Below, in pieces: positions 6,801 to 62,900 of a stretch of 64,000 nt of DNA (the stretch's first letter is position 1; each line of letters starts with the position of its first letter). Made by a program: the position numbers and the translations under genes. Source of the stretch: Nereocystis luetkeana (lineage: Eukaryota > Sar > Phaeophyceae > Laminariales > Laminariaceae); assembly GCA_031213475.1 (NCBI GenBank), contig JARUPZ010000026.1, forward strand, positions 574,501 to 638,500, in the 5' to 3' direction. Below the pieces are notes generated by a model, which was given only the letters and a program-made list of their open reading frames with translations, made no database searches and was not told the DNA's origin.

Positions 6801-9800
6801 CCACACCACACCACCCCAACACCCCCACCTGCGGCTCGACCAAGCCGTAGATGTACCCTCAGGCATGACCAGCCCTCCCCCGCCGCTACTAGCAGCCTCC
6901 CCCCTAGGCTGCCATGCGCGCCCTATGATTTCGCAGCGTGTTTTACATTGTCTGTCCCACAAGACCCACCGCCTGCAAATAAATGAAGAAAACAAAAGAG
7001 GGAGAGCGACGATTGGATGGGATGGGGTGGGATGGGGCAGGGTGTGGTGGGGTGGGGTGAGGTGGAGAGGGGCGGAACAGACGGGAAGGGGCGGGGCGGG
7101 ATGGGACGGGATGGATGGGACGGGAAGGGACGGGATGAGACAGGATGAGATGATTTGGGATGGGACGAACCGGAACGGGACGGGGCGGGAGGGGATGGGA
7201 TGGGACAAGATGGGACGGGGCGGGAACGGGCGGGGTGGGATGGGATGGGATGGATGGGACCGGACGTCACGGAACGCGATGGAATAGAAGGGGGTGATGC
7301 GACGGAGAGGGACGGGACGTGGAGGGAATGGACGTCGCTGTGGGGAAAAGCTAACGTCTAACGAAATGACGACCAAAGCATCGGGGGCCAGCGGCCTTTT
7401 TCGAACCTAGTCCACCCCGACCCACACCGAGCGAGCATCACGTCTGCCCCCGCGCCCCGTACCATACCACAACCGCAATCTGGGAGCCCACGAAAAGGAC
7501 GGTCAGCACGGTTGCCTCGATGACGAAGGTTGTTCACGACAACAACAATTTATGCACTAAAATATACCTGGTAAACCCGACGAAACCATAACCCCGACCG
7601 CCCGGGAAATGTGTCAGAAATTGATATAATGAGGAGTTACTGCAGTGTGGACTATCAACTTTTTTGGCGAGGCTGGGCCGAGGAGTAAACTCTACTGTAG
7701 TGCGGACAAAAGCGGGGCTGCGAAAGAAAGCAAGCGATGGATACGCCACACCGACCAACTGTACGTTAGCTACGCTGACACACCTACAGGTGTCAACTGC
7801 CACTCCGACCGACGAAATCAAGAACGTAACCTCTAGGTGCCTTTCGCCGACGGCCCACGAAAAAAACAAACAATTCCACGATCGCATGGTTGACATTATT
7901 CATAATTGGAGCCCGATCCAACGAGGCTTAACCCAAAAATAAGAAATCATTTTTTGGGCTAATGACGTCCACACGGCCATGCAATTAATGGCATACTGAT
8001 GCGGTGGGATCGGTATGCGGCGGGGTTGGTATGCGGTGGGATTGGTATGCGGTGGGAGTAGGATCAGTATGCGGTGGGATTGGTTAGCGGGGGAACTCTT
8101 ACGTCTCCCAGATCCCGAGTAGCTTTCCGATTGAGGTATTGCTGCCCAGACACAAACAGCTCCAGCGGGTTCCGGAGCGCGGTGAACACCACGTAGGGCT
8201 GGCGAACGTGGGCCTGAAACCCTGCAATCAGTTACAGCGGTAGTAGCAGAAGCAGTAGCAGTAGCAGAAGCAGTAACACCAGTGGCAGAGGCATTGGCAT
8301 CAGCACCACCACCACCATCGCCACCAGAAGCAGCAGGAAATGCATCAGCAGCAACAGCGCAAGAAACAAGACAAGAAAGCGGTGGACACAGCACAACAAG
8401 CAGAAACAGCAAAACCAGCAGCAAAACCAGAAGCAGGAGTAGCAGGAAAAGCAGCAGCAGCAACAGCGGTAGCAGCAGCGGCAGGAGCAGCTGCCGAGAC
8501 TGCAAAAGAAACAGCAACATTAGCAGCAACGGCAGCAGTAGTAGCAGCAACAGCAGCAGTAGTAGCAGCAACAGCAGCAGTAGCAACAACAGCCGCAGTG
8601 GCAGCAAACGCGCAGCACGATAATACTCGTTCTGCTGCACGCCTGCACTCAAGGGGCTGAAAACACCCGCTTGTACAACGTTCCAGTGGTAGCTACATGC
8701 GAGTCTCAATCGGAAAGCCCACCATCTACTGTACTGCCGTAGATCATCTGAAACCTTCACGGACGTAATAAGAGGTTGTGCAGGATCTGCTTAGTACAGA
8801 TCCAACCCATCCCTCACGTGCTAGTAATAGATCCTGCGAACTATACTGCTTCCCACCGGCAGCATGATGAGCTAAATCCTACAGATCATACAGATCATGC
8901 AGATCAGTCCGAATACATCTTCCTTGCAAGATTTAGGAGATCAAGGGGTCGGTCATCTGTTCCATGTGTGGAATACTATTAGTCGCACCGCCGGGAAAGT
9001 CCTCCTCTCTCCACCCCCCTCTTCCTGCATATTATCTATACACGTTTATCTCGTCTTGTGCGTTTCCTTCTTAACAGTATATGTTCTCTGCATATCTATC
9101 ACGTGCATCTCTTCGTATGTATGCGTTCTCTCTTACATCTTCCACTCCGTAGATGCATCTGAAGATATCTACTTTAGACCTGTCTGCGCCTGCTGCAGTA
9201 GAGTGAGTCGGAATGTCGTTATATCCCGCCTGATCTACCTGTGTGTCTTTCACGTAGATATATCTGCATCTCTCGAGACCTATCTATCCGAATACCTACA
9301 AATATATCTGCCACATTCAATATCTACCGCTCTATCTGCATCTCCTAATATATGGGTGTATCTGCAAAACTCTAGCAACCTTCCTGAATATCTCCCCATC
9401 TATCTTAATCTCGTTCAGGCCAATCTGCAGTTGTGTGGGCATCTGCTCGACTCCACGTCTATATCAGACATCATGTGGATAGTTGTATCCCCGGGCTAGA
9501 ACCCTCTTGCCTTGAAAATAATCCCTCTTTCGTGCTCCGATCAGAGTCGAAATGGCGACTATATCCCCGGCCAAAGCGGTACAAAGTTAAGCCAAAATAT
9601 CACAGCACATAGCACCGGCTTTCAGCCACCGTTCTTATAAAACGCGGGTGTTCCTATGTGCAAAGTCGTCACTTTCACTCTTCGGGGGCTATTAATAGAG
9701 GGTGAACACTACCAGGTACAACATTGGCCATTGCTTGGTTGAGAGGTGATCAATCTGGCGTCCTAACCCTTAAATAGTTCAGTATTACTACCATGTCGGG

Positions 9801-59900: not shown

Positions 59901-62900
59901 TATGATAAGGCGCCACCCCTGCAAGGCATTGCCCAACAAAAACGTAAGGCGCCACCCCTGCAAGGCATTGCTCATAAAAATAAGGCACCGCTCCTGTAAG
60001 GCACTGCTCAACAAAAAAGTAAGGCGCAACCCTTGTAAGGCGTTGCTCATATAATAAGGCGCCACCCTCGTAAGGCGTTGCTCACATAATAAGGCGCCAC
60101 CCCTGTAAGGCACCGCTCCTCTCTTGATAACCTATTACGGGGGACCATAGTTGACAGGACCTATGGTACACATAAAAAACTATATGTTTAACCATTTTTA
60201 CTAACAATATTTGGTCCTGTTAACTATGGCCCCCCGTAATAGACATTTCAGGGCAGATATATCGATGATCTGTGTTGTCTATGGCTCATGTTGACGCGTG
60301 GGGGGTCGCACAATGATCTGTGTCGTCTACCACGTACCCCATTGTGCTGGAACTGCGCTGCTGTGCAGGTAGAGGCAGGTTAGGATCTAAATGATCTATC
60401 TGATCTATCTGGTCTATCTCTCTGTAGATAGATATATCATCAAGTGTCCGATGTGAGCATGTTTTCAATATGTTTAGGGCTTCCCCCCCTCCACCCCCGC
60501 CCTGCTCCGGCTCGGAACGGATGCGTGGTCAATGGTCAAGCAACGAATGAGTACGCCCCCTCCCAACCCCCCTCCCCCCCCCCTGTCATGATCCCCTGTT
60601 CTCTGTCTTCCCCAGGATGATGAACCGTTGCCGTTCGAAATTGACGTCAGAGCGCGCGGTCGGATTGGAACACATGCGCAGAGCATTTCTCCCGCTGCCG
60701 CCGCCGCTGCGGCCGCCGAAATATTTTCCGACTTCGAAGAGGTAACCGTGCTATTATTATTATTAAACTGTGTACCTGGTATATGTTTTTTAGGTTCCGA
60801 TTCATATTACATATTGACATTGTTGTTTTCGTCATCCGACTATGTGTACTGCGGTAGCATGAGCTTCAACGTTGATCACTAAGAAATATCCCTCAAAAGA
60901 AAAAAAAACACTTGGACCTATGCCAATGGAAACGCGAAGTTCAAAAGTTTTTTTTCAAATATATCGCTTTGAAAAAACAGCCGAAAAATTTCATGTACCG
61001 CCGCTGTGGGAAAAATAGAGAAAAATGTTTGATTTTTTCTTGTTTTCCCCCCAACGGCTGCAGGCGGCGCAATTTGTTTTTTTCTGGTCGCAAATTGTCA
61101 ACACGGTGATCGAAACCAGCTCGTGCGACGATCGACGCTCGATCTCGACGTAGACTCAGCCCACGGCCAACCCACTCGGTATCTGGCAAGCCCAACGAGT
61201 ATAGATGACGGCCTCGAGTATATCAGGTGGATCCATGGTCTAGGGGGCGAGAGCTTGCCGGCGGCGTCCTACGGTATCCTCCCAAACCTGAAAAAAAGTC
61301 TAGTATTCGCCATTCGAGACGGATGGAGAAGTTTTGTCTTCTGTTTTGTGCAAACCAGCGGCCAAATATTTTTTAACCACACGAACGGTCAGCTCCCGCC
61401 ACATGACACCGGCCATGGTGTGAAGACGGTGACCCTAGGGTGGGTCGGAGCCCCTAACGAGCGCCCTCCGTTCAGAATTCATGACGCAATCGTTGGTTTT
61501 GTTGATCGATGTCCGTCAAGGACTCGGAATCTCGCCGCTTCGAACCAAAGATCGGCCTGAGTTTTTCTCAAGCCGATGTTGGCCCAACATCGGCCCCAGA
61601 TTTGCTTTTTTTGGGCTTTTCCAAAAGTTAGGAACTTTTTTTTTTGTTAGGTGGCCCATAGGAAGCGTGTTCAGATTTTTTTTGGCGGGTATCTTTGAAA
61701 TTCAAACTTTTTATTGCAACTTCGCTGTACCATTGGCTTAGGTCTTACCTGGTACATTTTTTATCAATAGAATTCCTACGTACACACAGAAGCAAGTTTT
61801 CATGTTTTTATTTGTTTTTTTCTTGTTGTTGTTGTTGTTAGTCTCAGTCTCAGTCTCAGTCTTAGTCTCAGTCTTAGTCTCAGTCTTAGTCTCAGTCTTA
61901 GTATAGTCGTAGGATTATTCTCCCTTCTGCCCCCTGCGCTGTCTCCGCAGAATGCCACTCCAAATTCGACGAGGTAACCATTGAACTTCAATTTTAGTGT
62001 TAGTACCCCATTGCAGCGCGAGCTCCAACAATGATCACCGATAAACACTCCCTGTGGGGCTCGTGCATGGAATATCACATTGTCATTCCTACGTATAATA
62101 TATCTTGTGGAAATAAATTCATGAGTGTCGTACTGCAATATAATGGATCACGTTATGGATCGAAGCTCGATAACCCAGTTCAGTACTTGAGTCGGAGTAG
62201 GGAATCAATCAGCGCTTTTAATTGGTACCTGGCATGACTTATGAAGTTGGATGGGGGCAGTTTACAAGGTACCAGGTAACTTAAAAAAAAATTGAACATA
62301 ACGCCGATTTTGTTTTAAATGCAGTACTGCTGTAGGTGATGTGTATCCTGAATCGGCGTTTCCGTTAAACCGAGATTCCTAGATCGATCTATCTCCTAAA
62401 TCGAATCGTGTGCCTTGGAGGTTGGAAAATGAATCAATTCACACACCCATAACCTCTTAAGGCCAACTATTGCGGTATAGAAAAATATTTCCGGGCCGAA
62501 TATTCGTGTTCTACCCGAGGATACAACAAATTCTTCAGTTTGTGTCTTAAGTTCGCTCGATGGGTTTTTACGTATTCGTATTATTAATAGGGGGTCAAAA
62601 ATCGGGGAAACAATCGAAACAGAAAATTGTAGAGGCTAGACCTGATATGTACCAGATATAATGTGAGACTATCTACTAATAGTACGGGAGTTTTTAAAAA
62701 GATCTGTAAGATTTTTCTTTTTTGCCGAAACTCGCGATTTACTCGGCGGGACTATCAAAAACATCGGTACACTCTTCAGCTTTCCGAGAGCTGTCCGTGG
62801 ACAGTTTTCGTTTCTCCAGAGTCTTCGTTGGAGTTTAGGCGAAAGCAATCAGTTTTCTCTGGAGGGTGAAACAGTATAGGCTGTAAATCGGAACTGGGGC

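What the first reader, a model, noticed from the sequence alone, without database searches (positions are those of the whole stretch)
7565..62278. Ultra-short palindrome TACC(A/T)GGTA scattered at about 28 exact sites
Exact 9-mers were read at 7565, 9710, 10272, 10279, 10913, 12880, 15334, 16044, 17164, 22911, 23167, 24850, 25477, 26535, 30558, 32160, 32251, 35878, 44178, 44403, 54014, 54947, 59548, 60773, 61746 and 62270, plus near matches. A random 64-kb sequence should hold about 0.5. All lie in introns or intergenic DNA and none in a called exon. This is not a standard SINE, MITE or tandem repeat. It could be a tiny mobile or templated insertion, a protein-binding palindrome, or a footprint left by element excision.
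Basis: partly seen in the sequence, partly recalled or inferred. Interest (0 to 1): 0.88.

Follow-up and report, generated by a model that had tools for sequence, protein, structure and literature searches.

The report
Transposon-like footprints carpeting a seaweed genome
A nine-letter DNA palindrome that recurs every few thousand bases in this brown-alga genome behaves like a seven-base scar added at TA sites, most likely by a jumping element that came and left, and the scars far outnumber any element found so far.

Summary
The window has 27 exact TACCWGGTA (0.46 expected). The host genome (465 Mb, a brown alga) has 182,395, against 1,744 for the reversed word. Flanks are not shared, so no single longer repeat explains it.

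It behaves as a 7-bp insertion, TA -> TA-CCWGG-TA. At two loci paralogous copies lack exactly 7 or exactly 14 bp there. Of 12 sites with a paralogue, 7 are at least 6 bp longer, against 21 of 501 random TA positions. The target is a symmetric TA-centred site (T at +6, p = 2e-15), a transposase signature. Mismatched versions look like decay.

Best reading: an excision footprint of a TA-targeting cut-and-paste transposon whose tips (CCWGG) are self-complementary, a 5-nt analogue of the Sleeping Beauty footprint. A second scar in the same genome (CTA-TTAA-TAG, +6 bp) matches a MITE present in the window. For CCWGG no parent was found: the one candidate was rejected, DDE_3 transposases gave 0 matches, other families did not complete or unasked. 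In 264 kb there are 104 footprints and no accepted parent.

The parts
6611..6619 (.).
7565..7573 (.). TACCTGGTA footprint
9710..9718 (.). TACCAGGTA footprint
10272..10287 (.). tandem double footprint TA-CCAGG-TA-CCTGG-TA (sites 10272 and 10279)
   Evidence: exactly 14 nt absent from paralogues window 30943-31090 and L018:4649-4862; two other paralogues (window 40837-41001, L018:4266-4038) align differently there
10913..10921 (.). TACCAGGTA footprint
12880..12888 (.). TACCAGGTA footprint
15334..15342 (.). TACCAGGTA footprint
16044..16052 (.). TACCAGGTA footprint
17164..17172 (.). TACCTGGTA footprint
22910..22918 (.). TACCTGGTA footprint (reader gave 22911)
23167..23175 (.). TACCTGGTA footprint
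24850..24858 (.). TACCAGGTA footprint
25477..25485 (.). TACCAGGTA footprint
26535..26550 (.). TACCAGGTA footprint (26535-26543) followed by what looks like a decayed second unit, TA-CCAGG-TA-CCTGC-TA
   Evidence: sequence
30558..30566 (.). TACCTGGTA footprint
32160..32168 (.). TACCTGGTA footprint
32251..32259 (.). TACCAGGTA footprint
35878..35893 (.). footprint plus what looks like a decayed second unit, TA-CCTGG-TA-CCTGA-TA, inside MITE copy 35844-35966
   Evidence: none of the 16 sister copies aligned there has the 14 nt, but the 14-nt placement is a hand realignment that also needs a ~10-nt deletion nearby
44178..44186 (.). TACCTGGTA footprint
44403..44411 (.). TACCTGGTA footprint
54014..54022 (.). 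TACCAGGTA footprint
54947..54955 (.). TACCAGGTA footprint
59548..59556 (.). TACCTGGTA footprint inside MITE copy 59491-59620 (+9 nt against 21 of 30 aligned copies: 7 plus 2 others)
60773..60781 (.). TACCTGGTA footprint
61746..61754 (.). TACCTGGTA footprint
   Evidence: its one paralogue alignment (19167-19281) ends at the site and shows no 7-nt gap, uninformative
62270..62278 (.). TACCAGGTA footprint
31332..31339 (.). second footprint class, CTATTAATAG; 6-nt gap in window 11206-11283 and in L027:8712-8846
40668..40675 (.). second footprint class, CTATTAATAG; 6-nt gap in L016:740-887
41676..41784 (.). intact ~105-bp MITE (TIR TTACGGGGGACCATAG, TA on both sides), inferred source of the TATTAATA class; one of the empty-site references for the MITE copies

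Best explanation
TACCWGGTA is the sealed donor site left when a TA-targeting cut-and-paste DNA transposon excises. Shown: marked copies carry an insertion against paralogues, exactly CCWGG plus a copied TA in the cleanest cases; the sites have a symmetric flanking preference around TA; they can stack in tandem at the same TA; and imperfect copies are in excess, as decay predicts. Inferred: the element's inverted ends read 5'-CCAGG...CCTGG-3' (or CCTGG...CCAGG). The transposase nicks 5 nt inside each end, leaving 3' overhangs CCAGG on both flanks. These pair through CC:GG on each side, with one central A:A mismatch that repair turns into A or T. Hence the constant CC-W-GG, and hence one uniform scar instead of a spread of scars. 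A minor product lacking the central base (TACCGGTA) is also enriched. Scars pile up because excision is frequent and resealing is clean, while the parent stays rare or is now extinct.
For: Genome-wide 182,395 exact sites against 1,744 for the reversed word. No conserved flank beyond target preferences among the 27 window sites. Empty sites: L026:8773 lacks exactly TACCTGG in two L014 copies; the 10272/10279 pair lacks exactly 14 nt in window 30943-31090 and in L018:4649-4862. Of 12 sites with a paralogue, 7 are >=6 nt longer than the best paralogue (differences 7, 9, 9, 9, 13, 14, 15), against 21 of 501 random TA positions. TA-centred palindromic target in 208 half-sites: T at +6 in 106/208 against 0.253 for all TA (p 2.4e-15), W at +7 in 158/208 (p 1.5e-12), Y at +1 in 148/208 (p 6e-4); the 33 one-mismatch sites of the window lean the same way (Y 52/66, T 27/66, W 51/66, no p-values). 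Tandem: 8 pairs 7 bp apart among the first 100 sites listed genome-wide; in the 264-kb sample 3 doubles among 101 arrays. Decay: one-mismatch copies 106 against 36 for the control, 57 of the 106 being transitions. W-deleted form TACCGGTA 17 against 3. A second scar class in the same genome, CTA-TTAA-TAG (62 TATTAATA against 6 in 264 kb), shows exact 6-bp gaps at 3 of its 12 sites with paralogues, best at L014:9088 against two L026 copies, and shares the C-TA-G preference with a TA-flanked MITE whose ends are TTAC...GTAA, so such scars appear to form in this genome. Literature passages seen: Sleeping Beauty scars equal the 3' overhangs joined by NHEJ (PMC7827188); palindromic TA targets for ZB, SB and Bari (PMC7913693) and for Passer (PMC9976928).
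Against: No parent element was found. In the window and L001-L028, among 272 pairs TACCWGG...CCWGGTA within 5 kb, only L025:9343-9433 had well-matching inner ends (3 of 16 mismatches; next best 6); elements over 5 kb, or running past a stretch's end, would be missed. The same scan with the reversed word gave better-matching pairs (2-4 mismatches), which I attribute, without a check, to that word lying in the window's MITE. L025:9343-9433 then proved to be the inside of a larger fold-back repeat. DDE_3 (PF13358) has 0 matches (30 candidates scored); PF03184 was asked repeatedly and never answered; PF01359 was not asked. Among the first 100 of 1,182 footprint-plus-CCWGG junctions listed, I saw no repeated parent-like terminus. 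A 5-nt scar is longer than the 2-4 bp stated for Tc1/mariner (PMC7913693). Only two loci give exact 7n differences; the other longer sites differ by 9 or 13 nt, and L012:3070 and L013:6993 do not align cleanly at the 9-mer. L021:1191 shows a difference of 0 in 4 of 4 paralogues (11 of 11 at the looser cut-off), so it arose by substitution. L025:112 is ambiguous (+2 and +9). L027:6842 and the best L015:1290 paralogue are uninformative because the paralogue carries the word or a near copy; L015:1290 is +6 against 22 of 27 copies, not +7. The inner C shows few C>T changes (3, against 9 C>A and 8 C>G), which plain neutral decay does not predict.
Confidence: 0.7

Rival explanations
1. Ultra-short insertion without an element: a transposase- or repair-driven process adds CCWGG+TA at TA sites directly, for example by capturing a cleaved transposon end, with no full element ever residing there.
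For: Footprints without visible parents: 104 exact sites and no accepted parent in 264 kb; the transposase-like TA target would be shared by this model.
Against: No mechanism of this kind is known to me. The palindromic core, the central W and the W-deleted minor product fit rejoined ends of an excised element, and a second scar class in the same genome has a visible MITE of matching ends and target.
Confidence: 0.15
2. Protein-binding or maintenance palindrome kept by selection, a eukaryotic counterpart of the HIP1 octamer of cyanobacteria (recalled).
For: Very high density (1 per 2.55 kb; 0 to 8 per sampled 10 kb) and a strict palindrome that rarely has S at the centre (104 W against 4 S).
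Against: Marked copies carry an insertion with TA duplication rather than point changes (L021:1191 is the exception); one-mismatch forms are in excess and more than half transitions; tandem stacking.
Confidence: 0.05
3. Hitch-hiking inside larger repeats: the 9-mer is an internal part of one or a few repeat families.
For: Some copies recur inside repeats, e.g. TACCAGGTACCAGGGTAGTATGGTACGAGAGGA three times in the 100 places listed; a fold-back family also contains TACCAGGATTG.
Against: No shared flanks among 27 window sites; only 13 of 104 sampled sites have any spanning paralogue within the sample, and several of those paralogues lack the 9-mer.
Confidence: 0.06

Closest known systems
Sleeping Beauty / Tc1-type excision footprint (TAC(A/T)GTA; the exact letters are recalled, the overhang mechanism is from PMC7827188, passages)
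   Same: TA target duplicated, palindromic scar with an A/T centre explained by annealed self-complementary overhangs with one central mismatch, palindromic TA-centred target.
   Different: The core is 5 nt (CCWGG), not 3; it is uniform and occurs 182,395 times; the parent element and transposase are unidentified.
Mos1 mariner (TIR beginning CCAGG, scar TACCATA/TATGGTA; recalled)
   Same: TA target and a terminus of the same letters.
   Different: The 3-nt Mos1-type scar TACCATA is not enriched here (57 against 61 for the reversed control, both strands); the scar here keeps both ends, CC-W-GG.
MITE of this window (TIR TTACGGGGGACC) and its inferred CTA-TTAA-TAG scar
   Same: TA target, scar with the TA copied, same genome, self-complementary core.
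   Different: 4-nt core TTAA, target C-TA-G, and the parent is plainly present (47 ends in 264 kb).
HIP1 highly iterated palindrome of cyanobacteria (recalled)
   Same: A short palindrome at extreme density without flanking conservation.
   Different: Here the word is produced by insertion at TA and decays, in a eukaryote.

Membership tests
Excision footprint of a TA-targeting (Tc1/mariner-like) transposon | Target-site duplication TA flanking the residual bases | tested here: met
   Two clean loci: empty paralogues carry one TA (or a one-base variant of it), marked copies one more per unit: L026:8773 and 10272/10279
Excision footprint of a TA-targeting (Tc1/mariner-like) transposon | Symmetric target preference around TA | tested here: met
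   T at +6 p 2.4e-15, W at +7 p 1.5e-12; same lean in the one-mismatch set
Excision footprint of a TA-targeting (Tc1/mariner-like) transposon | Residual bases equal to the tips of an existing element's inverted repeats | tested here: not met
   No accepted parent with CCWGG tips in about 290 kb scanned; the L025 candidate was rejected. The rest of the genome was not scanned for such pairs
Excision footprint of a TA-targeting (Tc1/mariner-like) transposon | Footprint of 2-4 bp | tested here: not met
   5 bp here; the 2-4 bp range is from PMC7913693
Excision footprint of a TA-targeting (Tc1/mariner-like) transposon | A DDE transposase of that superfamily in the genome | tested here: inconclusive
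   PF13358 0 matches; PF03184 did not complete; PF01359 not asked
TTAC MITE scar (CTA-TTAA-TAG) | Exact 6-bp insertion and the same target as the MITE | tested here: met
   6-nt gaps at 3 of 12 sites with paralogues (L014:9088, window 31332, window 40668; the other 9 are shared words, simple repeats or unclear); base before TA is C in 71/124 scar sides and 23/40 TA-flanked MITE ends, against 0.207 for all TA
HIP1-like maintained palindrome | Arises and persists by point substitution under selection, not by insertion | tested here: not met
   one site, L021:1191, did arise by substitution

The most novel reading that the evidence does not exclude
The scar is the normal end state of the system: a mobile element lineage, or a host-assisted excision process, whose insertions are almost always removed and resealed through self-complementary 5-nt ends. 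Sealed sites (182,395 exact, more with decay) would then outnumber resident elements by well over 100 to 1, making an empty footprint perhaps one of the most frequent interspersed DNA units in the genome.
Probability: 0.25. Interest if true: 0.88.

Novelty: new variant of a known kind. Interest (0 to 1): 0.72.

Why it matters
Excision scars are usually thought of as rare, varied and hard to recognise, so the past traffic of cut-and-paste elements is invisible. A uniform, countable scar would give a genome-wide fossil record of excision: rate, age and target choice. It would also suggest that self-complementary ends are a way for an element to leave without harming its host. It would mean that repeat annotation can miss a very frequent class of insertion. 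If the parent is truly absent, the scars record an extinct or near-invisible element.

Tried and rejected
Larger repeat family: no flank conservation among the window sites. Chance or base composition: shuffles, third-order Markov models and the reversed word. Protein-binding palindrome: set aside because of the insertion evidence.

Parent candidate L025:9343-9433 (91 bp with both TAs, ends CCAGGATTG...CAATCCTGG): first taken as the parent. It was rejected after the genome search gave only 14 matches to its terminus, two of them its own ends, and several of the others share sequence outside TACCAGG (judged by eye).

SB-type scar TACWGTA (95 against 32 in 264 kb): of 8 sites with a paralogue one shows exactly +5 (L017:7355), four show 0; too weak to claim. 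Extra-G variant: TACCAGGGTA 7 against 0 for the reversed word, and 39 of the 100 junctions listed read CCWGGG-TA, 38 of them A-centred; this hints at a CCAGGG terminus, not confirmed. An earlier count said about 45 of 100; the recount is 39. Four viral contigs with the rejected terminus have no partner end within 2 kb. Rfam gave nothing relevant for the window at the gathering cut-off or for L009-L022 at E 0.01, save one weak match, MIR841 in L016, far below its cut-off.

Not tested: exon against intron, allelic variation, other brown-algal genomes, genome-wide clustering of flanks.
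Full report
What was checked. The window contains 27 exact TACCWGGTA, against a mean of 0.46 in 100 dinucleotide shuffles. By z-score it stands first among palindromes of 7-11 nt with at least 6 copies and among TA-bounded palindromes with tandem arrays masked. The 27 sites share no flank that would make the word part of a longer repeat.

Genome scale. The window lies in an unnamed 465,085,209-bp assembly, G000, at C26:574501-638500. That genome holds 182,395 exact copies, against 1,744 for the same word read backwards: about 105 times more, or one per 2.55 kb. 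Twenty 10-kb stretches taken at C1-C20:200001-210000 plus the window gave 104 sites in 264 kb, against 2 for the reversed word; L009 has none, L016 and L026 have 8 each. The organism is a brown alga: an ORF in L010 encodes an acylaminoacyl-peptidase whose named relatives include Scytosiphon (74%), Ectocarpus (72%) and Discosporangium (56%), and an L021 ORF carries 12 EsV-1-7 motif stretches (PF19114). The species is not known.

It is an insertion. Copies of repeats that lack the word show the empty site. The cleanest is L026:8773, where two L014 copies lack exactly TACCTGG. At 10272/10279 the double unit TA-CCAGG-TA-CCTGG-TA is missing as exactly 14 nt in window 30943-31090 and in L018:4649-4862. 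In the abundant ~105-bp MITE, copy 35844-35966 reads, on the strand, GTGTGTACCG-TA-TCAGG-TA-CCAGG-TA-GGTCC where copy 48201-48318 reads GTGTGTACCG-TA-GGTCC; none of the 16 sister copies aligned there has the 14 nt. This last alignment was made by hand and needs a ~10-nt deletion nearby; MAFFT and BLAST did not place it so. Copy 59491-59620 has 7 extra nt plus 2 others. In a uniform test, 12 of 104 sites had a spanning paralogue and 7 of those 12 were at least 6 nt longer than the best paralogue, by 7, 9, 9, 9, 13, 14 and 15 nt (the last two are the overlapping 10272/10279 pair), against 21 of 501 random TA positions. So exact multiples of 7 were seen at two loci; the 9- and 13-nt cases carry further changes, and L012:3070 and L013:6993 do not align cleanly at the 9-mer. 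Against the reading, L021:1191 shows zero length difference in 4 of 4 paralogues; the other sites are uninformative or ambiguous.

Target and decay. Read outward from the TA on both sides (208 half-sites), position +6 is T in 106 (control 0.253, p 2.4e-15), +7 is A/T in 158 (p 1.5e-12), +1 is C/T in 148 (p 6e-4) and +3 is A/T in 144 (p 5e-4); +9 and +10 show nothing. The one-mismatch copies of the window lean the same way. A symmetric preference around TA is what Tc1/mariner and pogo-type transposases show (passages in PMC7913693 and PMC9976928). One-mismatch copies number 106 against 36 for the control, and 57 of the 106 are transitions, as expected of scars decaying neutrally. The inner C is an exception, with few C>T changes. 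Tandem copies 7 bp apart make 8 pairs among the first 100 sites listed and 3 doubles among 101 arrays in the sample: the same TA was hit again.

Mechanism. A palindromic core with a free A/T centre is what is expected when both flanks carry the overhang CCAGG: four bases pair, the central A faces A, and repair leaves A or T. Sleeping Beauty leaves 3-nt 3' overhangs that become its scar (passages in PMC7827188); its letters TAC(A/T)GTA are recalled. Here the same logic would need a 5-nt stagger, more than the 2-4 bp stated for the superfamily (PMC7913693). The scar lacking the central base, TACCGGTA, is enriched (17 against 3), which fits trimming of the mismatch. These steps are inferred.

A second scar class supports the setting. 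TATTAATA occurs 62 times in 264 kb, against 6 for its reversed word; with flanks, CTATTAATAG 24 against 0. It shows a 6-bp gap in paralogues at 3 of 12 sites that have any: L014:9088 against two L026 copies, window 31332 and window 40668. At the other nine the paralogue shares the word, the place is a simple repeat, or the alignment is unclear. Its target C-TA-G matches that of the window's MITE, whose ends are TTAC...GTAA and are preceded by TA at 40 of 47 ends; the base before TA is C at 23 of those 40 ends and at 71 of 124 scar sides, against 0.207 for all TA. I read it as the scar of that MITE (TT plus AA).

The missing parent. Of 272 TACCWGG...CCWGGTA pairs up to 5 kb apart in the window and L001-L028, only L025:9343-9433 stood out. 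The reversed-word control of that scan gave closer pairs, which I attribute, unchecked, to the MITE's inverted repeat containing that word. The L025 terminus has 14 matches genome-wide, two of them its own, and several of these copies share sequence outside TACCAGG; L035 shows a larger fold-back structure (by eye). I therefore rejected it. DDE_3 has no match. Of 1,182 junctions of a footprint followed by CCWGG and a purine (control 8), the 100 listed show no repeated parent-like end; 39 read CCWGGG-TA, a variant with one extra G. In the plain sample TACCAGGGTA occurs 7 times against 0. So the parent is rare, extinct, or of a form not searched. The excess of scars over elements, 104 to none accepted in 264 kb, is the strangest part of the finding.

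Novelty. Searches of the paper library returned no paper with the 9-mer plus footprint and transpos, and among the titles listed (capped lists, most papers not opened) I saw none on a genome carpeted by one uniform scar. In the Ectocarpus TE paper (PMC12477816, passages only) the words footprint, excision and palindrom do not occur. I class it as a new variant of a known kind: a TA-transposon scar with an unusual 5-nt self-complementary core at extraordinary number.

Noticed in passing
window 41676-41784; 20 merged intervals in the window, 17 aligned: A ~105-bp MITE with long inverted repeats (TTACGGGGGACCATAG...) flanked by TA; folds as a hairpin (z -6.0 to -8.7 for three copies).
   Followed up: yes
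window, 22 sites of TATTAATA: Second over-represented ultra-short palindrome, CTATTAATAG, with 6-bp gaps in some paralogues; probably the scar of the MITE above.
   Followed up: partly
window, 25 sites of TACWGTA: Third, weaker palindrome with the (recalled) letters of the Sleeping Beauty scar (25 against 5.8 in shuffles); one +5-bp paralogue example at L017:7355.
   Followed up: partly
L033-L046; L025:9343-9433: A fold-back repeat family with a long palindrome and an internal TACCAGGATTGGTGGTGTC in several of these loci; first mistaken for the parent element.
   Followed up: partly
window 1124-1218, 16674-16768, 25728-25822, 30630-30724, 37275-37369: Another fold-back repeat of ~95 bp (reference copy TAACCCTTTTAGAACC...GGTTCTAAAGGGGTTA), five full copies in the window.
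   Followed up: no
G000, e.g. C1:10382189 and C1:11794178: Variant TACCAGGTACCAGGGTA with an extra G, in part multiplied inside a repeat.
   Followed up: partly
window 27185-27630, 57623-58002, 59711-60112, 34626-34927: Large tandem arrays with periods 23, 15, 39 and 3.
   Followed up: no
L021:5456-7915 (-): 820-aa ORF with 12 EsV-1-7 cysteine-rich motif stretches (PF19114).
   Followed up: no
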